A stretch of 64,000 nt of DNA. Source: a virus. The notes beneath the pieces are model-generated. The model searched no databases, was not told the DNA's origin, and saw nothing but the letters and a program-made list of their open reading frames with translations. A program made the translations under genes and the position numbers. This document shows, piece after piece, positions 1 through 63,658 of the stretch; the first letter of the stretch is position 1, and each line of letters begins with the position of its first letter. The stretch lies in the IMG/VR virus record IMGVR_UViG_3300042991_001118, positions 1 through 64,000 of that record; one strand, 5' to 3'.

Positions 1-1784
1 AACTCAGTTTTCATCTTGTTCCATTCAGATTTCAACATCAATATCTCATTTTTATATCTTGCCATGACGATTGCGCGTTCTTTATCTTCAAAAAGCAGCC
101 CAGACGAGAACTCTGCTAAAAGTGATTTCCCATTTGATTTTTGGGCTAAACTCAATGATTCTTGAAGCTGCACAAAATCTGTCATGTCATTATAACACCT
201 GATTACGCAATCTTTCTTAGGAATAAATCCACATGATTGCTTCAATCCCCTAAACAATGCACCGATAATTCGCTCCGTGATAAGCGAATCAAAAGAAGAG
301 ATTACCACTTCACCTCTATCTGGAGAGGCGAAAATCCCACCACAGAGTGAATCAGACAGAACACTTTTTGAAGAAAAACAAACCCCCTCATTAAGCCCAA
401 TACTTTCAGAAAAATCCACGCCATCCACTTCGTGAATCTCTCCTTTTCTTTCGCCAGAAATAACCTCCAAAGAATATATTCTCTGTCCCATTGGAGGATT
501 GGGGTAGTCTCCCTGCCACTTAGCGGCATCGACACTGGACAAAACCTTAACTTCTGACCCTACTAAAATCCTACCGCCTAGCTCGGTCTTTCTATATAAA
601 GCCAAGAGTAAATCAGATTTTAAAACATAACTGGATCCATCCCGAATTTGAGATTCATACAGCTTTTCGATATCCATCGCAAAGGAAAAGCAATTACCCT
701 GAAAATATTCCTTCCCAGAAGAAAAAATCCGTAGAGAATTCTCGGATTCATTCAAATGTTTCAGATTCTTAAGACCTTCGGAAGTATTCTGGTAAAGACC
801 ATTAGAACGATGCATCAGCCTTCCAAGCCCTCTATGCATCATTCCAGAGAATGGGGATGCCTTATGCCACTGCTGCGCCTTCCTTAACGCACTGGATCGC
901 TGTAAAAGCTGCCTGGCACTCGTAATCTTAGAGGCGATACCCATCGTCCGATTCCGACGTGAAAGAATTTTCTTCTGAAAATCTCGAATTCTGCCAAGTG
1001 TTGCGTTCTTATCCTTAAGACGAAATCTAAAACCGCCACTGACCCAAGAGGCTTCCTTCTCCTTTGAATTCCAATTTAAATTACCAGGAATATCATTTTT
1101 CCAGATGCCCTCAAGAAGAGAATTCTCACATGACAACATAAGAGATGCATACGTTTTAGAATCCTCTCTAAGTCCATTCTTCATTGCAAAAAGATATGCC
1201 TCTGATAAAATTTGCAATGCCCGTGATGGGGAAAAAACTCTACCATGCAAATTTATTTCCTGATTCATCCAGGGGAGTGAATTCCGGCATAGCAACCAGA
1301 CATCAGAATGCTTTGGAGATTCAGACAAAATATAATCTGGATACAACTGGATTCCTCTAATCCATGTTTCTAAATCCTTGGTTTGGAAAGCCTCAGAAAG
1401 GATTCCCATTGCTGTCGCAGTGCAACTCCGATTACTTAAACGGAGGACAGAATTAGAAACTTCTAGTAAATCTTTTATTCCGCACTCCAAAAGGATTGGA
1501 GCACACCACATGTGCACAATATCAGATTTTATCCTATTTGGGGTCTCAGATATTTCAGACATGAATTTGTGCAGAGCAAAATACTCTTCTAAATTCTGGT
1601 AGTATTCAAGTCTGGTAGACTCGTCTACCGTATATAACTTACCACCACATGATGGACATTTGGTGGGATAGCGTCCTCGATAGACGGGTACATTCAATCC
1701 ACACTCGCATCGCAATTTTATCTTGGAACAAGCGCAAAACTTATTTGCCATGCCTGGCGTAATTTTTATACGACATGTACCCAT
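1..1784 (-). CDS. Partial large protein with N-terminal zinc ribbons, cut by the window edge
   Basis: The frame starts at the ATG at 1784 and I found no stop in the stretches I checked down to position 1, so the C terminus lies outside. The N terminus carries paired cysteines (CACSK, CECG, CPSCGG within residues 15-50), a likely zinc-binding head. The rest is a helical protein I do not recognise. Around residue 465 it has the motif SIGLNEG, the same (L/I)-x-E-G signature found repeatedly in the 1745-residue neighbour, so it may be processed by a phage prohead-type protease. It is the last visible member of the minus-strand cluster from 10.7 kb. Confidence 0.75.
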   Translation of the reverse strand, partial: MGTCRIKITPGMANKFCACSKIKLRCECGLNVPVYRGRYPTKCPSCGGKLYTVDESTRLEYYQNLEEYFALHKFMSEISETPNRIKSDIVHMWCAPILLECGIKDLLEVSNSVLRLSNRSCTATAMGILSEAFQTKDLETWIRGIQLYPDYILSESPKHSDVWLLCRNSLPWMNQEINLHGRVFSPSRALQILSEAYLFAMKNGLREDSKTYASLMLSCENSLLEGIWKNDIPGNLNWNSKEKEASWVSGGFRFRLKDKNATLGRIRDFQKKILSRRNRTMGIASKITSARQLLQRSSALRKAQQWHKASPFSGMMHRGLGRLMHRSNGLYQNTSEGLKNLKHLNESENSLRIFSSGKEYFQGNCFSFAMDIEKLYESQIRDGSSYVLKSDLLLALYRKTELGGRILVGSEVKVLSSVDAAKWQGDYPNPPMGQRIYSLEVISGERKGEIHEVDGVDFSESIGLNEGVCFSSKSVLSDSLCGGIFASPDRGEVVISSFDSLITERIIGALFRGLKQSCGFIPKKDCVIRCYNDMTDFVQLQESLSLAQKSNGKSLLAEFSSGLLFEDKERAIVMARYKNEILMLKSEWNKMKTE

Positions 1785-1796
1785 TTTAAATCCTTA

Positions 1797-2810
1797 TTAA
1801 AATTTTTCTTCTATTACAAAATTGTTAGTCGGTCCAAATAAATAACCACCCTCAACGCGTTCAACAGCAAAAATAAATTTCTCTTCCGATTTTTTCTCAT
1901 TTGGATCAGGTAATGGACTATCTCCTGGAATTTCTGACGATGGTTTTTTTGTTGAAATATCCACTAAATATGGGTCCAGCCATTTTAAAAAATTTCTTGC
2001 TAAAATATTTATGGTTTCTTTAGAATATTTTTTTATATGAGGTGCGAATACCCTGTATATCCCTCCACCATATTGTGTACATCCAAATCTAGTCATAACA
2101 AACGCCCATCGTCCAGTTACTATTTTTAAAACTGAAACAGTAGATAATTTCTCAAACGATTTAAAATCACTACTAGATGGAAAAGAAGATATATTATGCA
2201 ACTTTACTTTCCCTGTAAAAAATGCATTCAGTCTCTCATGCACAATATCGTCCGGATTATATTCCCCTTCCCAAAAAAAAGAATTGATATCTCCAGAAGA
2301 ATAATGATTGTGTATCGCAATCCACCTGGTACCCTCAAAAGAAAGCCGGAAAATATCAGGATTTGATTTGTTGATTTCCCTTAATAATAATTCTGTTGGA
2401 ATATCAAACGAAACGGTGTTTCTATTATTAGATGACGTTATAAAGCCGAATTCTACTAATCCATTTAAATTTGTGAAGACATCTAAATGGTATTCAATTT
2501 TTTTATTATAAAAAAATGGATAAAACGCATTGTATACCGACTCTGGATCTATTAAGGGTCTCGATATGTCTATTCCATTGTGAGCAAACGTTTCCTGTGG
2601 AAGAAAAAATAAAACGTTTGGATATTTGTTTTTTATTAAAGATAACGCGATTCCCTTTAAATCTGTCTTCGAAGATTTAAAAACTCCGAGAGATGGAACA
2701 TGCACGCGTTCAAAAAGAGAACGCAATGTCGCACTACGCGAAAAAGGAATCCTGCGAGGCTTTAAATCATCCTCGCAGACGCTATTCCAAAACGCAGACA
2801 AATCTAACAT
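1797..2810 (-). CDS. Unknown 337-residue protein with a JAB/MPN-like HNH-S-D segment
   Basis: Not assignable to a named family. A segment near residue 168 reads IAIHNHYSSGD and resembles the H-x-H...S...D zinc site of JAB/JAMM metalloproteases such as RadC. The protein at 26054-27274 has a similar IAVHNHPY segment, so the two may share a divergent JAB fold; this is inference. The C-terminal 45 residues are charged and proline-rich. The ATG overlaps the stop of the upstream 1745-residue gene by 7 nt (ATGTTAG), indicating translational coupling. Confidence 0.8.
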   Translation of the reverse strand: MLDLSAFWNSVCEDDLKPRRIPFSRSATLRSLFERVHVPSLGVFKSSKTDLKGIALSLIKNKYPNVLFFLPQETFAHNGIDISRPLIDPESVYNAFYPFFYNKKIEYHLDVFTNLNGLVEFGFITSSNNRNTVSFDIPTELLLREINKSNPDIFRLSFEGTRWIAIHNHYSSGDINSFFWEGEYNPDDIVHERLNAFFTGKVKLHNISSFPSSSDFKSFEKLSTVSVLKIVTGRWAFVMTRFGCTQYGGGIYRVFAPHIKKYSKETINILARNFLKWLDPYLVDISTKKPSSEIPGDSPLPDPNEKKSEEKFIFAVERVEGGYLFGPTNNFVIEEKF

Positions 2811-5800
2811 GGCTTACCAACCTTACCTAAATTGACCATGCGTGGATAGAACGACATGGCATTGGGATGTGCTTTCGCACCGAACGCCACCCCATGATAA
2901 AACACGACGATATCCGCATTAGACTCTGCTAAAATATAATTCCCTGGGACATCCACACATGGCATACATCTCTGTTGCGAAGAAACTTCAAAACTAGATT
3001 CATATAGAATGGAGGTATCAACTTCTGATAAATTTTCCCTCAAAGCATTCAGAAAGAATGGCAAATCTGTCAACTTATTACGTGAAGGAAGCGAATGCAT
3101 CCCCTTATTGGACTGCAAATAATCTTCCCATTTCTCTTGATACTTCCTCGCTAAGACATACGCCTTGGCATCGTACTCCTCAATCAACCTCTCAATATCT
3201 ACACCATATTTGTACAGAGCCTCCTCGTATGCGACATCCGCACTAATTTGGACACCACGACCTTCTGGATGTTTTAAATCAAGAGTTTTTGGACCAGAAG
3301 TCCTAACCGTTACCATATGCTTCGCCCTGTCCGATTTCCAAAGCTGAATGGCCGCATAAATATCACGGAAATTTATTGTAGGCTGCCCAGCAATAGGTCG
3401 TTTCCCCCACAAATCCTTAAAAATTTGGAATAGAGATAGAGATGGGCGATCCTTTGGCATAAAATTTTTGAATAACGGCCACAACTTGCGAGTCTCATCC
3501 TGGTGTGCTCGGTACTCATCATCAATCAGTTTTTGATACTCAGCTTTGTATTCCTCAATGAATTCCTGTCTCTTCCTACTAATTTCCTGGACACCATCAG
3601 ATTCACTCAATGATGAAGCAGTAAGCTCACTGGATAAAAGAATATTCCCTAACGAATCTCTCATGGATTCAGACTTATCCGTAAAAATATCAATTTTTTT
3701 TAATAATAATACAATCGCTAACCACATTGGAAGCGCACCGATAAGCCAAGTAACGCCACTAAAAATAGCAATCTGCATTATGATAGCGACTAAAATACAC
3801 CATGCAGGTAAAATCTTATCTATAAATCCACCAATCCAAAGTATTGTAGCCTCTATTGGACGAAGATACCATATGGATTGTATCCGTACAGCATCCTCAA
3901 TATCACTCTGGCTATACCCATACTTCTCGGCAAGGGAAAGAACTATCGATTTAATCTCCTCTGGACTTTTATCTTTAAGGTCTTGAGCTATTTCATTAAC
4001 ACGTTTTTGATGGTTCCCCTGGACGATTTTCTCCCACATTATCCGGAGCGATCCTATAACGTTGTCTACGACACCCTCGTTTAAACATTCTGGACGTATC
4101 GCGGAGCTACTTTCTAAAGTATCTTGATTTTTTAAATTGGGATACCTCTCAAAAATCACATTCTTGACCTCTTCCGTTTCGATTTGGGTCTGGGAATACA
4201 ACGCCAACATCGCGAGAGAATTCGCAGCCCAACGTTCCGTGTGCATTGGATATTTGCGATATTTTGGTAAGGCGAAATCTGAATCCGGTAGCTCGTCAAA
4301 ATCATCATCAGAATTTGTGAACTCAACACACTTAGAAACAATTACTACAAGCCAAAGGAACAAAAAGGATAATCCTGGAGTCAACGCTCCAATGGGAACA
4401 AGAGCATCAGCCGTTTTCAAAACCAAACCCAACGCCAAAAAACAAGCCATAATGAGACAAGCCGAAGCATTATTAAAGGTTTTCCAAAGCCATTTATAAA
4501 CAGAATCCCATGTCTTTGCAAACCAGCCCCAGCCTTCATTTATCGTAGCCTCATGCATGACATTCTCTGGAATATTTAAACTCTCTCGAATTTCATCTAA
4601 CGTATCCCGAAGCTCTTTTGGCTGCATCCGACGTAAACGAGAATACTCATTCAAAATATAACTCTTGTGGTCCTTAACTAGAGACCACAACTCAGATAAA
4701 GCCTCGTCTACTGTCCTTTCAGTGAGATACAAACGAGACATGGTAAATAAACTTTCATTGTTGGAAAATTTCTCTTTTCCACTAGAATCTCTCGATTTTT
4801 TCTGATCCTCCATGTCTTGTTTAACGATATTTAAAATATCCTGTTGCAATTCCTTTGATATCTCAGTATTCTTTTTCAGCAACACACGGGTGCGTATCTG
4901 AATCAAAAGATAAGCAACTATCCCCTTTTCCAATCCACCGAATAACCAAGAAAAAACATATAATTCAACAGCTAATACTAAACAACCCAGAACAAGTATA
5001 GACAACAATATTACAACAACAGATGTTGTACCAAAAAGTGTAGGCTTATCATGATAAACCTTGGCAAAAAGCCCAAGGACGTTATTATAAAAATCTTCCA
5101 TCATGGAAGATTCCGATAAGCTCTCATGTATTTTATTCTCTGATATTCCAAACTTCTGTTGTACGTAGGAAATTGCCTCTTCTTGCTTTTGTGGAGAATC
5201 CTTCAACTCCAAGAATTTATTCCAAATTGCGTCTTTGCTTTTCTCAATTGATGACAAAAAATTATCAAAAAATCTGGATGCAACATCCTCATTTAGATAA
5301 CTCTCGGTTGTATAAGACGCAAACCGTCCAGTTTTATAATCACTTTGCGTAAGCCTAGAAGGCTGCTGTAAATATTTTTTTTGTCCCAAAACCTCATCGA
5401 CGAATCCTTCAATTGAACTCTCGAGCCAGCCTATGAGTTTCCCTTGGATACCGTCATTATATTCATCTTCCGCCTCTGCCTGCGTGATATCTTTCTCTTT
5501 CGCGAGTCTATCTAACTCGTCTTCCTTTTGCTGCAACTTCTCTTCATATTCCTGTTTGATTCGTTCTAGTTCCTTCTTCGCTGCCTCTCCTTTACTCTTT
5601 TTATTCGAGTCATCCGAATTCACTAGAGAACTGATAAAAGTCTTTGCAGAATTCCACTTCTCCTTTACCTTGTCAGAAATATCGGATAGCCAGCCCTCAT
5701 CTAGGGAAATGGATTCATTAGCCACCATTCTTGTCTGCCATTCTAAATTAGCCTCCCAATTCTCAATTACTGTCTCAAGATCGCCAAGAACAGAATTTTC

Positions 5801-31889: not shown

Positions 31890-32102
31890 TTATCCGTTAC
31901 ACTCGTAGGTGTCAATTCCATTTAATGCCAAGACCGCTAAGGACAAAGTCTGAACTCGATTCCCCAAGACGCGTTCCGATCCAGAACTCTCCCCAGTATT
32001 CAATACAGAAATGTACCTCTCCGACGCATCCAATAATGCAGCGTGTATCCCCTGCTGCACCACCTCAATCCTCTTAACCTCTTCTTTTGTCCTCTTACTC
32101 AT
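31890..32102 (-). CDS. Unknown 70-residue protein
   Basis: Helical (EEVKRIEVVQQGIHAALLDASERY), no motif. It precedes the Myb-like gene and is the last minus gene before the insertion-sequence region. Confidence 0.5.
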   Translation of the reverse strand: MSKRTKEEVKRIEVVQQGIHAALLDASERYISVLNTGESSGSERVLGNRVQTLSLAVLALNGIDTYECNG

Positions 32103-32268
32103 TTGAATATCTCCTTATGCAAAACCTCAAATTGACTCTGGAATAAACTCAAAGAACAAATTAAATATAAAACGAAAATGGAAATGTAGTCAAAACTGTA
32201 GTCAACCCCAGAACCAATATCATGAGAAAATATAGAAATACCCAACTTGCTAGTTGGCAAAAATATTC

Positions 32269-32338
32269 TTGACTATGCAAAATAACTTATTATACTCCTA
32301 ATAATAAATCTAATATCAATAAAAATTAGGAGTTATAC
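32269..32338 (+). promoter_or_regulatory. Transposase promoter and ACTCCTAAT hairpin
   Basis: TTGACT (32269-32274), 16 bp, TATACT (32291-32296). ACTCCTAAT (32294-32302) faces ATTAGGAGT (32325-32333), which also contains the ribosome site, so the hairpin could hide it and limit transposase translation. Confidence 0.6.
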
Positions 32339-33166
32339 ATGAAAAAAGATCAAGAAACAACTATCATCACAATTTACATAATCATTGACGCTCTTTGTGA
32401 AAATTTATTACGCCATCCAGCACAAAAACAGAAATTAACGGATGCTGAAATAATAACGATAGCAATATGTTCTGCCATTTTCTTCAACAGCAATCATGAC
32501 AAAGCTCTTTCCTGGCTGCGCATAGCTGGCTATTTCCCTGAGATGCTTAGTTTATCCAGGTTCAATCGAAGGATACATCGTCTAAAAGAGTTTATCAAAT
32601 TCTGTTTCGAGAGCGTCAGCGAGTTGTTTCTTACGAAAAAATTATACATCGCCGATTCTATGCCTTTGCCTGTATGCAAAAGAGTGCGGGCTTGTCGAAA
32701 TAAAAAAGTCCGAGGCAGAGAATACTATGGCTGCTGTGTTGCAAAAAATGAAAAATTCTTTGGATTCCGGCTGCATCTCATTGTGGATACCCAAGGAATT
32801 CCTGCATCTGTCGCCATTATGCCTGGAGCATACCACGATATCACTCCTGTGTATGAAGTTACGTCGCCGTTGCCGGAACAATCGACTGTCATGGGAGATA
32901 AAGCATACAACTGTAAAAATGTCGAAGATGCTTTGAAAGAATTCGGCACCACACTGATGCCCAAACGTCGTAAAAATATGAAAATGCAGTGGTCTTTGTT
33001 CGAGCAATATTTTATCATAGGTCAACACAGAAGGCAAATAGAAACATCGTTTAGCATTCTCTCCGACACTATGGGACTCAATCATATCAAAACTACGACA
33101 CTAAAAGGCTTTATGATTAAAACCTACGCTGCCGTGCTCGCTATGATTTTCTATATCGTTTTCTAA
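32339..33166 (+). CDS. IS982-family-like DDE transposase
   Basis: 275 residues, full length for the family. The core YIADSMPLPVCKRVRA...GREYYGCCVAKNEKFFGFRLHLI...HDI..V......VMGDKAYN has the IS982 pattern with the DDE aspartates (ADS, GDKAY) and a C-terminal ETSFS glutamate. It ends 7 bp before the stop of the convergent IscB gene, which leaves no room for a normal right end unless it lies inside iscB. Terminal inverted repeats were not found by eye. Confidence 0.8.
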   Translation: MKKDQETTIITIYIIIDALCENLLRHPAQKQKLTDAEIITIAICSAIFFNSNHDKALSWLRIAGYFPEMLSLSRFNRRIHRLKEFIKFCFESVSELFLTKKLYIADSMPLPVCKRVRACRNKKVRGREYYGCCVAKNEKFFGFRLHLIVDTQGIPASVAIMPGAYHDITPVYEVTSPLPEQSTVMGDKAYNCKNVEDALKEFGTTLMPKRRKNMKMQWSLFEQYFIIGQHRRQIETSFSILSDTMGLNHIKTTTLKGFMIKTYAAVLAMIFYIVF

Positions 33167-33173
33167 AATCATC

Positions 33174-34646
33174 TTACAAACAAACCATACCTGCATTTTG
33201 CAACACGAGGCTGCACTCTTTAGATGGGACATAATCTTTTTGCATCGCAAAACCGACCCGCATGCCCATTTCTCCGTATCCTTTGATTACACAATATGTT
33301 CCCTTATATCGAACCACATCTCCTTTTCTCAGTTCGTCGTATCCGCTTCGTATGACTTTCTTTCCAGGCAGCACACGCAAACGTGCCAGAATTTGTTTGC
33401 CTTTTTTAGCGACTAGCTCTGTCAGGCTGTCAGACTTTTGTCCCGTTCTTTTGTTGCGATTTTTAGCCACGATTTTTGTGCCATCTTTATAGTTTCTCTC
33501 CCTTGTGGCATGGATAAGCTGGCGATGGTGCCTTCGGAACTGTTTGTATTCATATACGATAAGGTCGCTAGATTTTATCGAGCCTATTTTATCTTCGTCA
33601 GAAAAGGAGACCAGATATGCGTCTATGCAATGGCTTTTGGGAAGTCCCAGATTTTGCCGTTTTTCTTTGGTCTCGTATCCATAAGTTAGACAAACAGTTG
33701 AAACAATTTGCATCAACCATTCATAAAATAAAGGCATGATTGTGTTTAGAATCGTCGTATGAACATACTTCTTACACATGCCTGCAAATACAGCCTTGAC
33801 CTGGGCATCTACTTTCTCATGGCGATGCACTTTCTCATGGCATTTTGCGCAAAGGGTGATCAGATTTTCCGGATTGTCCCCGCCTTTCTGGCTTGCCCAT
33901 ATTACATGGTGTACGTGCAAATTCCCTTTTGTGTTACCACACAACTGGCACGTATGCTTGTCTCGGCAAAGCACGTATTCCTGGCTGTTGGCGTACCCTT
34001 TTTTTCTGCCGTTTTGGTACTGCACGCCTTGAACGGAGGGATTGTCAAGTTTGTGGATGTCGAATTTGCCATATTCCAGATGCACATGCGCTATAGGCAA
34101 TATTTTAGCTGCTTTGTCACTGAATCTTTTGTGCGTTTCCAACAAATGGCTGGCCGTAGGCGTGAGCCAACCTCTGTTTCGGCGGCGATTATGAAAGCGG
34201 ATCGGCTTAGGTTTTATCCCTTTGCAAAGCAAATTTTCGGCGGTATTCGATATTTTGTATCTCTTTTCACCAAAGTATGTTTGCGCTTTTTTCGCCCTGC
34301 GTTTTCTAACCAAACGACGATGCCTCCTTCTGCTTTGCCTGTGCATCCTGCGTTCGGCCATATTTTCGGACACTTCCTTGCTTCTAGCTTCCACATGTGC
34401 CGCAAATACTACTTCTCCATTCTCTTTTCTCACGACTAGCGCGATATCTTTTCCGCCTGGGTCAATTCCCATAATCAAAGGTTGAGTGTAGGATGTAGTA
34501 TCATATAAAAGTTGTATCGTGAATGGTTTACGACGTATTACTTTTGCAAGGCCGGCTTTTAGCAACTTTTTCACTTTGCCAAATCTTTTCGTCGGCATGA
34601 GTGGCTGGCCATTTTCCGATACGACATAAACGTAATTATTTTCCAT
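33174..34646 (-). CDS. iscB: IscB RNA-guided nuclease, apparently intact
   Basis: 490 residues from the ATG at 34646. Domains in order: N-terminal PLMP domain (GQPLMPTKRFGKVKKLL), RuvC-I (IMGIDPGGKDIA), arginine-rich bridge helix (RRMHRQSRRRHRRLVRKRRAKKAQ), RuvC-II glutamate (HVHLEYGKFD), HNH (CQLCGNTKGNLHVHHVIW...NLITLCAKCHEKVH), RuvC-III (KSHCIDAYL) and the C-terminal target-interaction region. All catalytic residues are visible. IscB uses omega RNA to cut DNA next to a short target-adjacent motif and is the proposed ancestor of Cas9. A longer frame upstream to 34772 is the omega RNA read in frame. Confidence 0.92.
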   Translation of the reverse strand: MENNYVYVVSENGQPLMPTKRFGKVKKLLKAGLAKVIRRKPFTIQLLYDTTSYTQPLIMGIDPGGKDIALVVRKENGEVVFAAHVEARSKEVSENMAERRMHRQSRRRHRRLVRKRRAKKAQTYFGEKRYKISNTAENLLCKGIKPKPIRFHNRRRNRGWLTPTASHLLETHKRFSDKAAKILPIAHVHLEYGKFDIHKLDNPSVQGVQYQNGRKKGYANSQEYVLCRDKHTCQLCGNTKGNLHVHHVIWASQKGGDNPENLITLCAKCHEKVHRHEKVDAQVKAVFAGMCKKYVHTTILNTIMPLFYEWLMQIVSTVCLTYGYETKEKRQNLGLPKSHCIDAYLVSFSDEDKIGSIKSSDLIVYEYKQFRRHHRQLIHATRERNYKDGTKIVAKNRNKRTGQKSDSLTELVAKKGKQILARLRVLPGKKVIRSGYDELRKGDVVRYKGTYCVIKGYGEMGMRVGFAMQKDYVPSKECSLVLQNAGMVCL

Positions 34647-34649
34647 ATT

Positions 34650-34850
34650 TTGCTCATTTATAAAAAATTCCGAAGAATAATTCCACACGAAGGTGGTCGG
34701 TCTCCCTGAACTGGGTGCAGGATTGGCATAGAGCCTGGGATTGGGAAGTTCATCCCAGGGTACTACCTGCATCCGTGTGTCACGTCCCTACTCAACTAGC
34801 AAGCAGGGTAACCCTGATAACTACAGCGTTCAATCCTAAAAACTTCGTGA
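34650..34850 (-). ncRNA. Omega RNA (HEARO) of IscB
   Basis: Read on the minus strand, directly upstream of iscB: an outer TGCAGG/CCTGCA stem, CCTGGGA/TCCCAGG hairpin (34734-34759), GGCTCTATGCCAATCC, and a CAGGGT/ACCCTG hairpin toward the 5' end (~34803-34816). This is the layout of HEARO/omega RNAs. The guide should be the ~16 nt at the 5' end beyond the element boundary, near 34820-34850. Exact ends are not determined. Confidence 0.75.
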
Positions 34851-34933
34851 TACAGACGAAAACTAAAGCAAAATTCAATAAAGTCTGCACCAGGGCGAAT
34901 CTCGATAAAAGCTCCTTTGCTTTTCCCTTGTCA

Positions 34934-35137
34934 TTATTCTTCTGCTGCTGTTCCATTCTTGTCCTCACTTATGTTTTTCCTTATCGGCCTACCAGTCCTG
35001 ACTACCTCATGAGGCATTTTATACCTGTCCTCTAAGGCCCTCCGAATTATCGTAACAACAGGGGACCCAGTCGCAAACATCTCCTCTTCGATTTTCTCGA
35101 AAATATTGTCCGGAATCCTTACAACCGTGTTTTTCAT
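34934..35137 (-). CDS. 67-residue CopG/ribbon-helix-helix-like protein
   Basis: KNTVVRIPDNIFEKIEEEMFATGSPVVTIIRRALEDRYK has the beta-strand plus two-helix layout of ribbon-helix-helix regulators. It is divergent from the antirepressor gene across a large inverted repeat, which it may bind. Confidence 0.65.
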   Translation of the reverse strand: MKNTVVRIPDNIFEKIEEEMFATGSPVVTIIRRALEDRYKMPHEVVRTGRPIRKNISEDKNGTAAEE

Positions 35138-35178
35138 CTTTTTTTATTCCCCTTCTTTTATTATTTTCTTAATATAAA

Positions 35179-35256
35179 CAATTTTAAATAATAAAACATA
35201 AAGATATTTATTTGTCAAGAAGAAAATAAAATATTTTATGCTTTATTATTTAAAAT
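35179..35256. promoter_or_regulatory. Large AT-rich inverted repeat between divergent regulators
   Basis: The left arm TTTTAAATAATAAAACATAAA...ATATTT (35179-35206) and right arm AAATATTTTATGCTTTATTA... (35230-35256) pair with few mismatches. TATAAT at ~35266 is the -10 of the antirepressor promoter, and a TGTCAA (minus TTGACA) lies between the arms. A likely joint operator. Confidence 0.6.
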
Positions 35257-35321
35257 TTTTATGTTATAATATTCTATGCAATCTTATATGGCTTTGTTTA
35301 ATTTTATGTTAGGAGATAATA

Positions 35322-36098
35322 ATGGATAATAATATCTTAATGAAGATAGAGGAAAAATTGCTTGGTGGAGAGTTGGTTCGGACCGCAAATGCAAGAGAAC
35401 TTCATGAGAAATTGCAGGTGTCTACGTATTTCACTACGTGGATACAAAGAAGATTGTGTGAGGCTCAAGCGATTGAAGGACAAGACTTTATAAGCCTTTC
35501 AAATTTGGAAGCCTCTGGGCAGACTAGTAAAATGATATATGTCTCTGCAAATATGTGCCAGCACATCGCGATGTTGGAGCGAACCGAAATTGGTAGGAAG
35601 GTGCGCCAGTACTTTATCGATGTCGAGAAAAAAGTAAAGGATATCGTATTGGAACAGACCCTCAAGGAAAAGGCCATGAGGGACTTTAAAGTGTACAAAG
35701 AATTAGGCGAGATTGTACAATTGCCTACGTCCACGATTATTTCGGAAGCATCAAAACTCGTGGACAGAACCTACGGCACAAACTTCGTCGAGTTTATTTC
35801 TAAGTCCCCACTCCTCGATAACGTGAAAGAATCAGACGAATACCTGGAACCCACAGAACTCGGAAAAATTCTGGGGATATCTGCAATCTCCTTAAATAAA
35901 AACCTGGAATCGCTCGGACTTCAAGATAAAACCGGAAATTCCTGGACTCCTACAGCAATTGGGAAAAAATTCTGCTTTGTACACCAGTGGTCCACTAGGG
36001 CAAAATCTGGTTACAACTTGAAATGGAATGTCAGGGAAATCTCTAATCTCCTTTTGAACAGAAATCCAACCCCACGTGTGGTTGGTGATGGCGGATAA
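35322..36098 (+). CDS. AntA/AntB-type antirepressor
   Basis: 258 residues, TTAGGAG upstream. The N-terminal domain ([25 protein letters not shown]...[47 protein letters not shown]) is a classic AntA/AntB domain of phage antirepressors. The C-terminal half (LEPTELGKILGISAISLNKNLESLGLQ) looks like a winged-helix/KilA-C-type domain. A phage switch protein; a second one is at 46915-47703. Confidence 0.85.
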   Translation: MDNNILMKIEEKLLGGELVRTANARELHEKLQVSTYFTTWIQRRLCEAQAIEGQDFISLSNLEASGQTSKMIYVSANMCQHIAMLERTEIGRKVRQYFIDVEKKVKDIVLEQTLKEKAMRDFKVYKELGEIVQLPTSTIISEASKLVDRTYGTNFVEFISKSPLLDNVKESDEYLEPTELGKILGISAISLNKNLESLGLQDKTGNSWTPTAIGKKFCFVHQWSTRAKSGYNLKWNVREISNLLLNRNPTPRVVGDGG

Positions 36099-36369: not shown

Positions 36370-36790
36370 TGAGTCCAACCGTCTATTGAGTCCATCTAAT
36401 CCATCCACGTGGCTATATTACATCCCAATCGCCTCGACAATGAACACCCAACCCATCCATCCCATCCCTTTTATCCTATCTAACCCATCCCATCCATCCC
36501 TTTGACCCCCTTTAGCCCGACCGCCCTTTCCATTCCATCCATTTTGTCCTATCCAATCCATCCCATCCATCCCTTTCATCCATCCCTAGACTCGATTACA
36601 GCCATTTTTATCCATACCAAAGACCTTTTCCATCCCTTTTATCCATCCAGGTCTATCCCCGGGCTAAAAACGCCTCCTACGTGGAGAAAAAGACCAAAGA
36701 GATATTCCCATCCATCCATTCCATCCCACCCAGCCTTTTAGCCCGACCGCCTTTTCCCCTCCATCCCTTCCATCGATTCCATCCTTATCA
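36370..36790 (+). repeat. CCATCC-rich low-complexity tract
   Basis: Dozens of CCATCC/ATCCATCC units with CCCTTT spacers give a pyrimidine-rich plus strand. It is followed at 36885-37160 by an ACAGACAGAA-rich purine tract, so strand composition flips abruptly. Confidence 0.8.
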
Positions 36791-45627: not shown

Positions 45628-46443
45628 TTATTTTTCATTATAGCGTTCTCTTAGTTTTTTTTCCACAATATTGTAGTATTCCGCCTCGATTTCTATCCCG
45701 AAGGCATCCCGACCTAAATCTATTGCGGCGTATAAAGAGGTTCCGGATCCCATGAATGGGTCTAATATGGAATCGCCTTCACGTGTAAACAGTTTAATGA
45801 ACCACTCAGGCAGAGCGTACGGGAATGTGGCGCAATGATTTTTATTTCCGCATTCCGTCGAGATGTGTAGGACGTTTGTTGGATACACCAGGGTTTTATC
45901 TTTCCAGTTGGAGATATTCTTTCCAAATCCGCTTCCAACAGAAGATTCTTGGCGTTGCATATCCTTTGCACTAAGGGTTTTCAACCTAGATTTAGACCAA
46001 GAACCTATTTGGACTTTAACTGCGTCTTGATACATCGCGAATTTCTTGTTTTTATTGAATTGGAGCACCCTTTCCCATGCATCTCGGAACCTGTTAGGCC
46101 ATTTCCCAGGGAAGCTATTCTTTTTATGCCAAATAAATTCCTCTGTCCATCTCCATCCCTGCTGTTTCAATGCGAGGATTAGCTCTAAAACGTATGTGCT
46201 TCGTTCACCCTGGACGACGTTTTCCTTGATGTTCAGGATGAACGTGCCATCCATTCGCAAAACTCTAAAGAGTTCCTTCGAGATTGGCAGAAACCAATCG
46301 ATGTATTCCCCGTGGTGTATCCCAGGATATCTGGATTTCCGTTGCATTGCATATGGTGGAGACGTAATGATGAGGTTGACTGAGTTGTCTGGAAAATTTT
46401 TTAGAACTTCCAGACAATCACCATGGTAAATTTTATGTCTCAT
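45628..46443 (-). CDS. DNA methyltransferase, TSPPY type (N4-cytosine or N6-adenine)
   Basis: 271 residues. TSPPYAMQRKSRYPG near residue 28 is the catalytic motif IV and DPFMGSGTSLYAAIDLGRDAFGIEIE near residue 225 is the AdoMet-binding motif I, so the order is that of the beta class. No cognate endonuclease is near, so it is probably an orphan protecting or marking phage DNA. Confidence 0.85.
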   Translation of the reverse strand: MRHKIYHGDCLEVLKNFPDNSVNLIITSPPYAMQRKSRYPGIHHGEYIDWFLPISKELFRVLRMDGTFILNIKENVVQGERSTYVLELILALKQQGWRWTEEFIWHKKNSFPGKWPNRFRDAWERVLQFNKNKKFAMYQDAVKVQIGSWSKSRLKTLSAKDMQRQESSVGSGFGKNISNWKDKTLVYPTNVLHISTECGNKNHCATFPYALPEWFIKLFTREGDSILDPFMGSGTSLYAAIDLGRDAFGIEIEAEYYNIVEKKLRERYNEK

Positions 46444-50526: not shown

Positions 50527-51447
50527 TCATAGATCAGTTTTGTTCCTAAAAGAGCAAAAACTAGTATTATCATTATTGCTTGCGTTTCTGGTGACATCGT
50601 CCATTTCCTCCAAAAATTTTTGTATTCTAATTTTCCCGACATCTATGTATTTGGATTCTTTCTCCACACCAATAGCTTTTCTACCATGCTTTATTGTGGC
50701 AACTATTGTCGTAGATACTCCGGCATATGGGTCTAAAACCAACTCTCCGATATTGCTCATCGCGAGAATACAACGCTCTGCGAGTTCAATCGGGTACTGA
50801 CATGGGTGAATCGTCTTTTCTGGGTGATTGTGTTTCACATTGGGAATACACCACACTTCATTGTGTGTTGTATCCAGTTGGAACTCCCAAAAATCAGACG
50901 GATTTTTCCCTAAAGGATTACAGGATAATTGCCCTTTCCTTGGACCTTTGAAATGTTTTTTCCCTGGATATTTTTGTGGAACCCTGACTTGGTCCAAATT
51001 GAACGTCGAAGTCTTTGACTTGGCAAAGCACAAGATCGTCTCATACCGACCTGAAAATTTATGTTTTGCATGCAGTCCATGTCCAAAATGCCACACCACG
51101 CGATTTCTCAAGAATAAAGGGGCTTTAAAAGATTTGAATATGTGGTAGTAGAAAATATCTAGAGGAAACAATTCACCGTCCTCTATGTAATTACCTACTT
51201 GCCAGCAGATGTTCCCATCTGGCTTTAGCACCCTTATGATTTCCTGGATTACTCCACGTTGTTCTGCTAAATATGTGAATAGTGGGGCTTTATTTTCATA
51301 CTCCTTTTGCATATTATATGGCGGAGATGAGACCACGAGATGCACAGATTCGTTTGACATGGTCTTTAGAAACGACAGGGCATCCCCGTGGTACAGGGTT
51401 ATTTTATTGTCTTCGTGATATTCGTTATGGATTTCAATGTTTTTCAT
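50527..51447 (-). CDS. DNA methyltransferase, SSPPY type
   Basis: 306 residues. SSPPYNMQKEY near residue 40 (motif IV) and LVLDPYAGVSTTIVATIKHGRKAIGVEKE near residue 245 (motif I) indicate an N4-cytosine or N6-adenine beta-class enzyme. Distinct from the one at 45628. It overlaps the acetyltransferase gene by 14 nt. Confidence 0.85.
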   Translation of the reverse strand: MKNIEIHNEYHEDNKITLYHGDALSFLKTMSNESVHLVVSSPPYNMQKEYENKAPLFTYLAEQRGVIQEIIRVLKPDGNICWQVGNYIEDGELFPLDIFYYHIFKSFKAPLFLRNRVVWHFGHGLHAKHKFSGRYETILCFAKSKTSTFNLDQVRVPQKYPGKKHFKGPRKGQLSCNPLGKNPSDFWEFQLDTTHNEVWCIPNVKHNHPEKTIHPCQYPIELAERCILAMSNIGELVLDPYAGVSTTIVATIKHGRKAIGVEKESKYIDVGKIRIQKFLEEMDDVTRNASNNDNTSFCSFRNKTDL

Positions 51448-57906: not shown

Positions 57907-58202
57907 ACGTATTCCTCTTTCCATCTTGGTCGTAATAGAGGGAAGGCGTTCTTGTGGTTCCCCTTTAGCATGTCAAATAACATATACCCTAGTCCTAGTG
58001 ACTTCAATCCAAAATCTCCTTTCAATTCTTTCAAAAACTCTTTACACAAATCCTCCGGTGGTTCAGATTTAAACACCAAGATTCCATTGATGTTTAAATC
58101 TGGATTTTTTAAAAACATTACAAAACCACCGCCACTTTCTAAATTTGGCTTTGGATCGAATACAAGCCTTTTATATTGGCTTTGTTGTTCTAGAATAGGC
58201 AT
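57903..58202 (-). CDS. Unknown 99-residue protein
   Basis: Ends in an ATGA overlap with the thymidylate kinase start. Alpha/beta, no recognised motif. Confidence 0.55.
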   Translation of the reverse strand: MPILEQQSQYKRLVFDPKPNLESGGGFVMFLKNPDLNINGILVFKSEPPEDLCKEFLKELKGDFGLKSLGLGYMLFDMLKGNHKNAFPLLRPRWKEEYV

Positions 58203-59089
58203 TTTTTGCCCTCCATGTAACTAAAAATATGCGCAACTACATCTACGGTCCACCCATTCCCCAGCATTTTATACCTCTGAAAATTTGATACACCATAGGT
58301 GTACCCAATCGGGACGGTCTGTAATTTTTCGCACTCTTCCGGGGTGAACTTCCGTAGCTCTCCGTGGACGTTTATTTTATTATTTTCTATCCAACTACCG
58401 TTGGATGTAATGGTTGGTGTAATGTCAAAAAACTTTTTACCTTTGTTGTATCCATGTGCCCTTTGGTCTACATAGACCATCGTCCTCTGCGATCTACCTC
58501 GCAGATAGTCGTTTCTCCCACATTTAGCATACGTTGCCGTTAAGCAGTATGCTAACTGTCGGTCTACCATGCCGGATTCGATTATGTCTTCCAGCACGAC
58601 ATTTCTCTTATCCGGTTGCGGAAAAGGCCAATTCGCCCAATACATTCTTTTCCTAGACTGTGCTGAGACTAAGGAGGAATCGACCTTTACTGGACGTATC
58701 CCTATCCTGTCTGAAATCACATCTAGCCATTCTTGTTTCATGCATACGTTTTCTAAAAAAACGTATTTTGGCTTTATCGCTTGGACAATAGAGATAAATT
58801 CCAGAACCAACTGACTTCTTGGGTCTTTAAATCCCAGGGATTTACCACATATTGAAAACCCCTGGCATGGAGACCCACCCATGACTAAATCGATTTTCGG
58901 TAGCGTTCCGATCCAATCACTCCACTCCTTGATATCTCCAAGCTGAATCGTGGAGGGGAAATTTTTCTGGGTAATCGAAATACAATATTTATCGGTCTCT
59001 GACGAAAAATATTGATCTACCGGAATCCCTGCTTTTTTTAGTGCTATCTGTCCACACGACATCCCATCGAAACAAGACAAAACATTCAT
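58190..59089 (-). CDS. dcm: C5-cytosine DNA methyltransferase
   Basis: 299 residues. LSCFDGMSCGQIAL (motif I), GGSPCQGFS (motif IV, catalytic Cys), FLENV (motif VI), QSRKRMYWANW (motif VIII) and a C-terminal RYKMLGNGWTVDVVAHI (motif X) give a complete enzyme. First gene behind the promoter at 59114-59142. No restriction partner nearby. Confidence 0.9.
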   Translation of the reverse strand: MNVLSCFDGMSCGQIALKKAGIPVDQYFSSETDKYCISITQKNFPSTIQLGDIKEWSDWIGTLPKIDLVMGGSPCQGFSICGKSLGFKDPRSQLVLEFISIVQAIKPKYVFLENVCMKQEWLDVISDRIGIRPVKVDSSLVSAQSRKRMYWANWPFPQPDKRNVVLEDIIESGMVDRQLAYCLTATYAKCGRNDYLRGRSQRTMVYVDQRAHGYNKGKKFFDITPTITSNGSWIENNKINVHGELRKFTPEECEKLQTVPIGYTYGVSNFQRYKMLGNGWTVDVVAHIFSYMEGKKCLF

Positions 59090-61110: not shown

Positions 61111-62163
61111 TCACTTTGTTTCGTCCTTAATTGGGGCAAAATTTAGGACGTTTTCCTTGGCCATTTGCATTAGAAGTTCCCATTCGGCCAAATTCATGTT
61201 AAATATTTTTTTTACCTTTCCCGTGTTCCCCCCACACAGGATTAAAAAATCAGAAAATGCCCTAGCTACAGACAACGCATCTTGCGCTATGATTTTCTTT
61301 TCTTCTCCAAGATTAAATTCTGGGAATGCGTCTATAATGTCCTGAAAAAATTCGACAGTATTTCCTGGTCTTCGTTCTCTATCATCTTGCCATGCTTTTG
61401 GCAAGGTCATTAGGAGTTCTACCGGGAGATTTTCTGGGGCAAATTCATCGTCATTCGCAACCATGAAATAACATATCTTTGCGAGTGCAAAGATATCTGC
61501 TCTTTCATCGACATTCCCAGCGTCCTCCATCTGTTCTGGTGCGGCATATCCAGGCGTGCCAAGAATTGCATTAGTCCTCGTCAGGACATTTTCTATTCCA
61601 GACATCGCTATACCGAAATCTATGAGCTTTGCCTGTCCAGATTCCGTTATGATGATATTGTCAGGTTTTAAGTCCCGATGCACGACGTTATATGAATGCA
61701 GTAGCCCGACTCCCTGCACTATTTGTTTAAATAACAACAACTTGTCTTTTAGAGACAAGGACGCACCCTGTGTTTGTATATATTTTCTTAGGTTGCTTCC
61801 TTTGCAATACTCGCATACAAAGTAGAATGGGGATTCTCTTAAGTCATATACCAGGGGGAATGGAGGAATTCTTCCAGACAAGATTTCACTATCTGATATC
61901 GTTGCCATTATTCTAGTGCTTCTGATAAACCTTTTTTCGTTCTCTTGACTGAGGTCAGGGAGTCTAATATTGAGAACTCTCTTTTGATTCAAAAGCATGT
62001 CTTTGTATAAAATGACTAGTTTTTCAGATCCCATTCCGAGGGTTTCTAAATACTCTCCCTGTGGTACGCAATCCCGTATCATGGAATTTGCATACATATC
62101 GACATTCCCAGCCATGAAGAGTTTTAATTTTTCGTAAAAATTTTTGTCTTTTCTCCCCAACAT
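61111..62163 (-). CDS. Ser/Thr protein kinase (Hanks type) with Lys-to-Arg change
   Basis: 350 residues. HRDLKPDNIII near 162, IDFGIAMSG near 181, GTPGYAAPEQ near 202 and DIFALAKI near 223 give a complete catalytic loop, DFG and activation segment. In the N-lobe the expected V-A-I-K lysine appears as VLNIRLP (Arg ~67), so ATP binding may be altered. No membrane helix. It lies next to the FHA-GAF protein, whose FHA domain would bind a phosphothreonine, so they likely form one signalling pair. Confidence 0.85.
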   Translation of the reverse strand: MLGRKDKNFYEKLKLFMAGNVDMYANSMIRDCVPQGEYLETLGMGSEKLVILYKDMLLNQKRVLNIRLPDLSQENEKRFIRSTRIMATISDSEILSGRIPPFPLVYDLRESPFYFVCEYCKGSNLRKYIQTQGASLSLKDKLLLFKQIVQGVGLLHSYNVVHRDLKPDNIIITESGQAKLIDFGIAMSGIENVLTRTNAILGTPGYAAPEQMEDAGNVDERADIFALAKICYFMVANDDEFAPENLPVELLMTLPKAWQDDRERRPGNTVEFFQDIIDAFPEFNLGEEKKIIAQDALSVARAFSDFLILCGGNTGKVKKIFNMNLAEWELLMQMAKENVLNFAPIKDETK

Positions 62164-62173
62164 AGTTCGCTCC

Positions 62174-63658
62174 TCATTTACTTGGTGTGGGGTTTTTCTT
62201 TTCTTCTATTGGTGTCCATTTACAGACAACTCCACCAGAATTTTTTAAAAGCAAATCTTTAAATTCGATTGGAGTTTTTTTCTTATCGAAATAATCTACC
62301 AAAGTTTGTGGATCCGTGGTGGACAGAACACATATCGTCTCTTCTGTTAATCCAGAAAATTGAGATTCTGCATTGACCTTGTCTTTTATCCCAGAACCCC
62401 ATTTTGCCCTAGACTCTGAATAGAACGCCGAGTTTTTATTTTTTGTTTTTAATACGATATTGCATTCTTCAAGTCCTATAAAATTGGCAGAATTTCCTAA
62501 AATAGAGACGATTCCGATAGAGCAAATAGCTTTTCCGCGAAGTTGGGGACACCAGTACGAGTCTAATTTATGCAAAAATAATGGGCCAGAACTATAAACA
62601 AATTCTGTAGTTTGTATCAGAGAGAATAGCCCAGCGAATAGCATAAGCTGTGTTGTAAAATCTCCTCCTGTTTGGTTCTGGAAGGAACAAAAAATTAAAT
62701 TATTGCTGTTGTCTACGCCTTTCTTCCCTATCGAAAAATTTTGCAATTGCTTATCAAATGCAGTACACGTGATATTGGTATCCACATCGAATCTTTGCAG
62801 CGATAAAATCATTGTTGCAGCTTGTTGTCTCACGGTTTCTTGATATAGCAAGACAGAGAAAACCCCTTCCATTCCGGGCATTAAGGCACTTAAAAGCAAT
62901 AAGTCTTCTTGTGTTAGGGCTTCTTTGTCCTCTAATGTGTCAATGTATAGAATTCCGATAAGTGTATCGCTATGGAACATAGGAAAGCATATGGAGCTAC
63001 AAACCTTATTTTCAACAATGCTCCTGGATAGGTCGTCAGGGTCTTCGACTTCTGTTGTCGAGAATCTTTTTGCTTCTTTCGTCTCCCAAACTTGATCTAA
63101 GATATACCGTGGCGGAACGAAGTTTTGTGGTGCTTTTGCTACGATAGGTATCCATTTTTTATTATCTACACGGTATACCACGCCACGATTGATATGGAAA
63201 TTTTGTTCTAGGAAGTCCAATAAAAATTTTGAAAATTGTGAAAGACTCCTGGGCATCCGGTTAAAAAAATCGCGTGACAATTTTTCTGCCACGTTCTTTT
63301 TATTGATTAGCTCCACGCCAATAGCCCGGACCTTACTTGTCTCCATTCTCCTGGTAGCCTGAGCTTCGTCTTTAAAAATTACAATGCACCCCTGTTTGGG
63401 ATGCCCCAAGACAATCACGTCGTTGTGATTTATCTTTATCGTGCTACTTGGTGCGATGGATACCCCATTGACCCAGGTGGATCCATCTAGAGTTTCCATT
63501 ATGACGCTTTCTGAATCGCGTCGTATTCTCGCATGTGCTGCCGATACGTTTTTACATTTTAATCCTAATGCTTGTAGCCATTCTAGGCTAAAAATGACAG
63601 GGTCATCACCTAGTATGATATTTTTCCCTGATTCTTGCAAGACGATATATGCGGGCAT
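62174..63658 (-). CDS. FHA-GAF domain signalling protein
   Basis: 494 residues. Residues ~15-95 form an FHA domain (SAAHARIRRDSE...DGSTWVNGVSI......DVIVLG). Residues ~145-275 form a GAF domain (GVVYRVDNKKWIPI...SICFPMFHSDTLIGILYIDTLED). The last ~200 residues are unrecognised. FHA binds phosphothreonine; GAF usually senses a small ligand. It is directly upstream of the kinase gene (10 nt). Confidence 0.8.
   Translation of the reverse strand: MPAYIVLQESGKNIILGDDPVIFSLEWLQALGLKCKNVSAAHARIRRDSESVIMETLDGSTWVNGVSIAPSSTIKINHNDVIVLGHPKQGCIVIFKDEAQATRRMETSKVRAIGVELINKKNVAEKLSRDFFNRMPRSLSQFSKFLLDFLEQNFHINRGVVYRVDNKKWIPIVAKAPQNFVPPRYILDQVWETKEAKRFSTTEVEDPDDLSRSIVENKVCSSICFPMFHSDTLIGILYIDTLEDKEALTQEDLLLLSALMPGMEGVFSVLLYQETVRQQAATMILSLQRFDVDTNITCTAFDKQLQNFSIGKKGVDNSNNLIFCSFQNQTGGDFTTQLMLFAGLFSLIQTTEFVYSSGPLFLHKLDSYWCPQLRGKAICSIGIVSILGNSANFIGLEECNIVLKTKNKNSAFYSESRAKWGSGIKDKVNAESQFSGLTEETICVLSTTDPQTLVDYFDKKKTPIEFKDLLLKNSGGVVCKWTPIEEKKNPTPSK

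What the first reader, a model, noticed from the sequence alone, without database searches (positions are those of the whole stretch)
33174..34850. Intact IscB with omega RNA in a phage-like genome
All PLMP, RuvC and HNH residues are present and the omega RNA fold is visible, so this is a potentially active RNA-guided nuclease on a mobile genome. Its guide is specified by the sequence just beyond the omega RNA 5' end.
Basis: partly seen in the sequence, partly recalled or inferred. Interest (0 to 1): 0.7.

Follow-up and report, generated by a model that had tools for sequence, protein, structure and literature searches.

The report
IscB riding inside an IS982 transposon
A phage genome carries a jumping gene of the IS982 type that has packed in a Cas9-ancestor nuclease (IscB) and its guide RNA, built so that one end of the transposon forms the first hairpin of the guide RNA; this pairing of IscB with a cut-and-paste (DDE) transposase has not been reported in the literature searched here, and a second copy exists on a bacterial contig.

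Summary
The IscB is real and intact (33174-34646, minus strand): curated IscB model 265 bits (cut-off 175), catalytic residues present, predicted fold matching OgeuIscB (Z 25). The omega RNA is real but is not standard HEARO (19 bits; cut-off 83). It is a short, divergent form whose helices are kept by compensatory changes in a relative.

IscB sits inside a 2570-bp transposon (32240-34809) with an intact IS982-family DDE transposase (32339-33166). The element is bounded by 17-nt inverted repeats that fit the published IS982 end consensus. A second such element (L097: IscB 60%, transposase 62% identical, related ends, both genes under purifying selection) shows the pairing is inherited. In both, the omega RNA's 5' hairpin is made by the transposon's own inverted repeat, so the guide can only come from DNA flanking the insertion.

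Best explanation: a DDE transposon uses IscB, re-guided at each jump, to cut copies of its insertion site that lack it and so be retained. The anatomy is well supported; guide use, cleavage and homing are inferred. Neither copy shows a target-site duplication, and no empty site was found. IscB is known with Y1 (IS200/IS605) transposases; I found no report with IS982.

The parts
32240..34809 (.). whole composite transposon, 2570 bp: IS982 transposase + IscB + omega RNA between inverted repeats
   Evidence: inverted repeats bracket both genes; same gene pair and related ends in L097 677-3228
32240..32256 (+). left inverted repeat (IRL), ACCCAACTTGCTAGTTG
   Evidence: 15/17 match to IRR, top-ranked inverted repeat of the two flanks; fits IS982 consensus AC(N)6T(N)5TT (consensus from PMC7335449)
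34793..34809 (-). right inverted repeat (IRR), ACCCTGCTTGCTAGTTG on the minus strand; also the 5' part of the omega RNA
   Evidence: like ends of plain IS982 relatives L198 and L204/L206
32269..32296 (+). promoter-like site of the transposase (TTGACT-16-TATACT); by eye a related leader precedes the L097 transposase
   Evidence: consensus scan, best of 14 where 8.7 are expected by chance: weak evidence
32339..33166 (+). IS982-family DDE transposase, 275 aa, intact; D106, D187, E235 kept in L097
   Evidence: NF033520 189 bits, cut-off 130; DDE_Tnp_1_3; 62% identical to L097
33174..34646 (-). IscB RNA-guided nuclease, 490 aa
   Evidence: NF040563 265 bits; OgeuIscB phmmer 313 bits; model matches IscB structures
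34660..34809 (-). omega RNA scaffold, about 150 nt (3' end approximate)
   Evidence: covariation with L097
34786..34808 (-). 5' hairpin of the omega RNA (guide adaptor hairpin), formed by the IRR
   Evidence: 9 of 9 pairs kept, 2 changed on both sides and 4 on one side
34729..34762 (-). central (nexus pseudoknot) hairpin, the only part the HEARO model sees
   Evidence: RF02033 19.4 bits; invariant loop UCC / downstream GGA pairing
34810..34825 (-). predicted 16-nt guide 5'-TGTAGTTATCAGGGTT-3', in phage DNA just outside the element
   Evidence: position relative to the element end and RNA 5' hairpin; inference, not tested

Best explanation
A composite IS982-family transposon. The DDE transposase acts on the two inverted repeats and moves the whole 2.57-kb unit (inferred). 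Transcription running in from the flank across the right inverted repeat gives an omega RNA: its 5' end is flanking DNA (the guide), its first hairpin is the inverted repeat, and the rest is the scaffold upstream of iscB (RNA structure shown by covariation; transcription and guide use inferred). IscB bound to this RNA cuts copies of the insertion site that do not carry the element, such as sister phage genomes or a donor site left by excision, and repair from an occupied copy puts the element back (inferred from what is known of OMEGA nucleases). Every jump gives the RNA a new guide. The element's own copy is spared because the guide match there is followed by the repeat (ACCC), which has pyrimidines where the related OgeuIscB needs NNRR (inferred; this IscB's own motif is unknown).
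For: Intact IscB whose nearest solved relative is OgeuIscB. Intact IS982 transposase 7 bp away. Inverted repeats at the outer edges of both genes fit the published IS982 consensus AC(N)6T(N)5TT and resemble the ends of plain IS982 relatives L198 and L204/L206. Second element L097 with both genes adjacent, both at about 60% identity, and related ends. dN 0.32 and 0.27 with saturated dS: purifying selection on both genes and similar divergence. The two IscBs form a 100/99 clade next to OgeuIscB. RNA helices kept by compensatory changes, including the hairpin formed by the repeat. Base rate: among 223 nearest-neighbour ORFs of the comparison IscB loci, a Y1 transposase domain appears once and no DDE transposase domain appears in more than one ORF per batch, L097 itself being one of them.
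Against: Only two examples. No target-site duplication at either, although 16 of the 70 IS982 members listed in PMC7335449 also have none (my count). The gene order differs: the transposase runs against iscB in the window and with it in L097. The L097 repeats match each other only 13 of 17 and do not stand out statistically on their own. The sequence that would follow the guide at an empty site (ATTT.. in the window, AGTT.. in L097) does not fit the NNRR motif of OgeuIscB. No empty site was found. No expression data. L097 is a 31% GC contig wrongly binned in a 70% GC genome, so its host is unknown.
Confidence: 0.6

Rival explanations
1. Two unrelated mobile genes lie side by side by chance: an ordinary IscB locus, and an IS982 copy that inserted next to it.
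For: The two genes have opposite relative orientation in the two loci, and no target-site duplication marks a joint insertion.
Against: The same pair of nearest relatives is adjacent in two different genomes. Outside the pair the next-best transposase found was 32% identical and the best genome IscB 41%. IS982-type ends sit outside both genes in both loci, and the repeat is part of the conserved RNA in both.
Confidence: 0.1
2. A phage-owned weapon: IscB now serves the phage, cutting rival phages or unoccupied siblings as homing endonucleases do, and the IS982 part is only the vehicle that brought it.
For: The element is in a myovirus; over 16% of HEARO/IscB contigs were judged viral or prophage-derived in PMC9755519.
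Against: The transposase and both ends are intact and under purifying selection, so the element still behaves as a transposon. The guide matches only its own flank in the 116-kb genome with up to 3 mismatches.
Confidence: 0.2
3. The RNA and IscB help the transposase choose or prepare its target, that is, RNA-guided DDE transposition.
For: The transposase-binding repeat and the RNA 5' hairpin are the same sequence, so RNA or protein could compete or cooperate there.
Against: IscB keeps both nuclease sites, as expected for cutting. A guide taken from the current flank would direct insertion only to copies of the same site, which amounts to homing. No evidence of contact between the proteins.
Confidence: 0.05

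Closest known systems
OgeuIscB and its omega RNA (PDB 7xht, 8csz; PMC9640706)
   Same: Closest solved relative (phmmer 313 bits), same clade, shares the long linker after the bridge helix. RNA with a guide adaptor hairpin right after the guide, a nexus stem, a pseudoknot hairpin whose loop pairs with a G-rich stretch downstream, then terminal hairpins.
   Different: Scaffold about 150 nt rather than 206. The adaptor hairpin is the transposon repeat. Carried with a DDE transposase; the genomic surroundings of OgeuIscB were not available here.
IS982 insertion-sequence family (PMC7335449)
   Same: Transposase, ends beginning AC with the AC(N)6T(N)5TT consensus, and spacing of repeat to transposase as in plain members.
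   Different: 2570 and 2552 bp instead of 845-1282 bp; carries iscB and an omega RNA; the family description lists only a transposase between the repeats.
ISC / IS200-IS605 elements with IscB
   Same: IscB with upstream omega RNA at an element end, guide from the flank.
   Different: Those use a Y1 transposase and no true inverted repeats; here a DDE transposase and IS982 inverted repeats.
Fanzor1 in eukaryotic DDE transposons such as Mariner (PMC3627910)
   Same: An RNA-guided-nuclease gene captured by DDE transposons, several of them in virus genomes.
   Different: Fanzor is TnpB-like and eukaryotic; this is IscB in prokaryotic elements.

Membership tests
IscB (RNA-guided endonuclease) | match to the curated IscB model with PLMP, split RuvC and HNH residues | tested here: met
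   NF040563 265 bits, cut-off 175; residues invariant or nearly so
IscB (RNA-guided endonuclease) | IscB fold | tested here: met
   AlphaFold model, mean pLDDT 70 with a weak C-terminal third; Foldseek E 8e-36 to 8csz; Z 25.4 over 280 residues to 8ctl
IscB (RNA-guided endonuclease) | RNA-guided DNA cleavage | not testable with these tools
   needs biochemistry
HEARO RNA (Rfam RF02033) | score at or above the gathering threshold of 83 bits | tested here: not met
   19.4 bits, model positions 94-126 only; L097 no match up to E 10; other IscB loci 110-152 bits
omega RNA of the OgeuIscB type | guide adaptor hairpin, nexus stem, pseudoknot hairpin pairing with a downstream G stretch | tested here: met
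   30 of 30 pairs kept in both sequences, 6 compensatory, compared with PMC9640706; only two sequences, and the structure was derived from them
IS982 insertion sequences | IS982 transposase | tested here: met
   NF033520 189 bits, cut-off 130
IS982 insertion sequences | terminal inverted repeats beginning AC, AC(N)6T(N)5TT | tested here: met
   both window ends and the L097 right end fit; the L097 left end has TC in place of the final TT
IS982 insertion sequences | target-site duplication of 2-10 bp (absent in some members) | tested here: not met
   none at the window or L097 element; plain relative L205 has a 9-bp repeat, TATATTTGA. Not universal in the family
IS982 insertion sequences | length 845-1282 bp, transposase only | tested here: not met
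   2570 and 2552 bp with iscB cargo; hence 'new variant'
ISC / IS200-IS605 elements | Y1 (HUH) transposase | tested here: not met
   the only other gene in the element is a DDE transposase

The most novel reading that the evidence does not exclude
A so far unrecognised class of DDE transposons that carry their own RNA-guided nuclease and get a new guide with every jump, because the transposase-binding repeat doubles as the guide-adaptor hairpin of the omega RNA; the OgeuIscB branch of IscB may have come from such elements.
Probability: 0.4. Interest if true: 0.85.

Novelty: new variant of a known kind. Interest (0 to 1): 0.74.

Why it matters
IscB and TnpB are thought to help single-strand (Y1) or serine-recombinase transposons survive the loss that comes with excision. 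Finding IscB locked into a double-strand DDE element would show that the partnership does not depend on the transposition chemistry, and would parallel Fanzor in eukaryotic DDE elements. A repeat that serves both as transposase site and as RNA hairpin would explain simply how a guide is renewed at each jump. The branch is the one that holds OgeuIscB, a widely used editing enzyme, and its scaffold of about 150 nt is shorter than those usually used.

Tried and rejected
Close-relative viral scans with the single IscB, transposase and two-sequence alignments found no third element. A wider IscB alignment gave 80 viral and 80 genome loci; only L097 has an IS982 transposase within the fetched flanks. 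The inverted-repeat pattern in viral contigs gave 6 stretches, none with IscB or the transposase. DNA searches of the phage and plasmid collections with the element or its left flank gave nothing, so no empty site. Samples of about 200 genomes from the phylum of L097's MAG, 350 from the phylum of G199/G203 (searched twice by mistake, same sample), 300 from the phylum of G200, 150 from that of G202 and 30 from that of G206 gave only plain IS982 relatives; two IscB searches gave nothing closer. A guide target elsewhere in the phage: none with 3 or fewer mismatches. The idea that IS982 and IscB are adjacent by chance was rejected because of L097. The host of the phage was not settled. The small ORF that seems to run across the empty site in frame was kept only as a weak hint: a frame match is expected one time in three. 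L118, a distant member of the OgeuIscB clade, shows no such ends. A chance inverted repeat of this length in 5 kb is not rare in itself; the case rests on position, the published consensus and relatives.

Full report
Observation. The ORF at 33174-34772 (-) is IscB. Its likely start is ATG 34646, giving 490 aa. PLMP (15-18), RuvC D62/E191/H339/D342 and HNH H246/H247 with the four cysteines are kept across 25 relatives. The nearest solved protein is OgeuIscB, and a predicted model matches IscB structures best. The record is a 116-kb virus contig with myovirus structural genes.

RNA. Rfam HEARO does not reach its threshold in the window; a permissive search finds only the central hairpin at 19.4 bits. 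Thirteen of 14 other IscB loci score 110-152 bits in the same library, so the failure is specific to this subfamily. The stretch between 34809 and iscB aligns with the same stretch of L097, with invariant blocks (GACGTGACACAC, GGGATGAACTTCC, AGTTCAGGGAGACC) and variable helices. Of 30 pairs, all are kept in both sequences, 11 vary and 6 change on both sides; slid structures keep 27-57% of cells and 0-1 double changes. The layout (hairpin directly after the guide, nexus stem, central stem, pseudoknot hairpin with UCC paired to a downstream GGA, terminal hairpins) is that described for OgeuIscB (PMC9640706), without its stem loop 2. With two sequences and a structure derived from them, this is strong but not final.

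The transposon. Seven bases beyond the iscB stop lies, convergent, an intact IS982-family transposase, 32339-33166 (+). Inverted repeats ACCCAACTTGCTAGTTG (32240-32256) and ACCCTGCTTGCTAGTTG (34809-34793) bracket both genes; they are the best inverted repeat between the two flanks. A survey of IS982 gives the end consensus AC(N)6T(N)5TT, lengths of 845-1282 bp and a simple organisation of two repeats flanking one transposase gene (PMC7335449). Both ends fit the consensus. Plain IS982 relatives of this transposase, about 31% identical, have similar ends: L204/L206 ACCTAAGTTGCTAGTTATG and L198 ACCCGTTGTGCTAGTTG. In the window the left repeat lies about 80 bases from the transposase start, as in plain members; iscB and its RNA fill the space between the transposase stop and the right repeat.

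Second copy. The genome scan returned L097 (4681 bp), with IscB 60% identical over its length and, 68 bp downstream, an IS982 transposase 62% identical. Its element runs from 677 to 3228, 2552 bp, with ends ACTCTAATTGCTAGTCA and ACCCTAATTGTTAGTTG. Here the right end follows the transposase stop directly, as in plain members, and iscB with its RNA lies between the left repeat and the transposase. So the transposase cassette is turned round relative to iscB between the two elements, yet in both the RNA starts at a repeat. Synonymous sites are saturated while dN is 0.32 (iscB) and 0.27 (transposase): old separation, similar divergence, purifying selection on both genes. Window and L097 IscB form a 100/99 clade inside a 100/100 group with OgeuIscB and L118. 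The L097 contig is 31% GC in a MAG otherwise near 70% GC, so the host label 'Actinomycetota' is not to be trusted.

How unusual. Of the 160 IscB loci from the two wide scans only L097 has an IS982 transposase nearby. Pfam on 223 nearest-neighbour ORFs shows a Y1 transposase once and no DDE transposase family with two or more members. PMC9755519 likewise reports few IscB/HEARO genes near IS200/IS605 TnpA. Full-text searches found no paper holding both 'IscB' and 'IS982', and nothing that pairs IscB with a DDE transposase was recognised among the hits; subscription-only papers are not covered.

Mechanism. Shown: element ends, gene content, RNA structure, selection. Inferred: because the conserved RNA begins at the element's edge, any 5' extension is host sequence, here TGTAGTTATCAGGGTT (34825-34810), and acts as guide; IscB then cuts unoccupied copies of the site. 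Difficulties: no target-site duplication at either element, and the bases that would follow the guide at an empty site (ATTT in the window, AGTT in L097) do not fit OgeuIscB's NNRR. Either this enzyme has another motif, or one flank has been rearranged. Also, in this particular insertion the 3' end of the guide (CAGG) can pair with the start of the scaffold (CCUG), which might weaken the RNA.

Verdict. Confidence in the composite element is about 0.85, in the full retention/homing explanation about 0.6.

Noticed in passing
window 35177-35260 and 35322-36098: A 37-nt AT-rich inverted repeat just upstream of an AntA-type anti-repressor gene, next to the transposon; possibly a phage regulatory region.
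   Followed up: no
window 36394-36581: Array of CCATCC-like short repeats between phage genes, seven overlapping copies in register.
   Followed up: no
window 32099-32239 and 34810-34968: The two flanks of the transposon join in frame into one small hydrophobic ORF on the minus strand, which the element may interrupt.
   Followed up: partly
window 45628-46443, 50527-51447, 58190-59089: Several DNA methyltransferase genes in one phage; nearby FHA-GAF and serine/threonine kinase-like proteins at 61111-63658.
   Followed up: no
L118 3983-5443: Distant IscB of the OgeuIscB clade on a very long branch, with a related RNA hairpin upstream but no transposase or inverted repeats.
   Followed up: partly
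L097 1-4681: 31% GC contig wrongly binned in a 70% GC Actinomycetota genome; carries a serpin gene beside the transposon.
   Followed up: partly
window 32242-32257 and L097 677-699: The left repeat of the window can itself fold into a hairpin (CCAACT-TGCT-AGTTGG) like the RNA hairpin at the other end, so both ends could in principle start an RNA.
   Followed up: no
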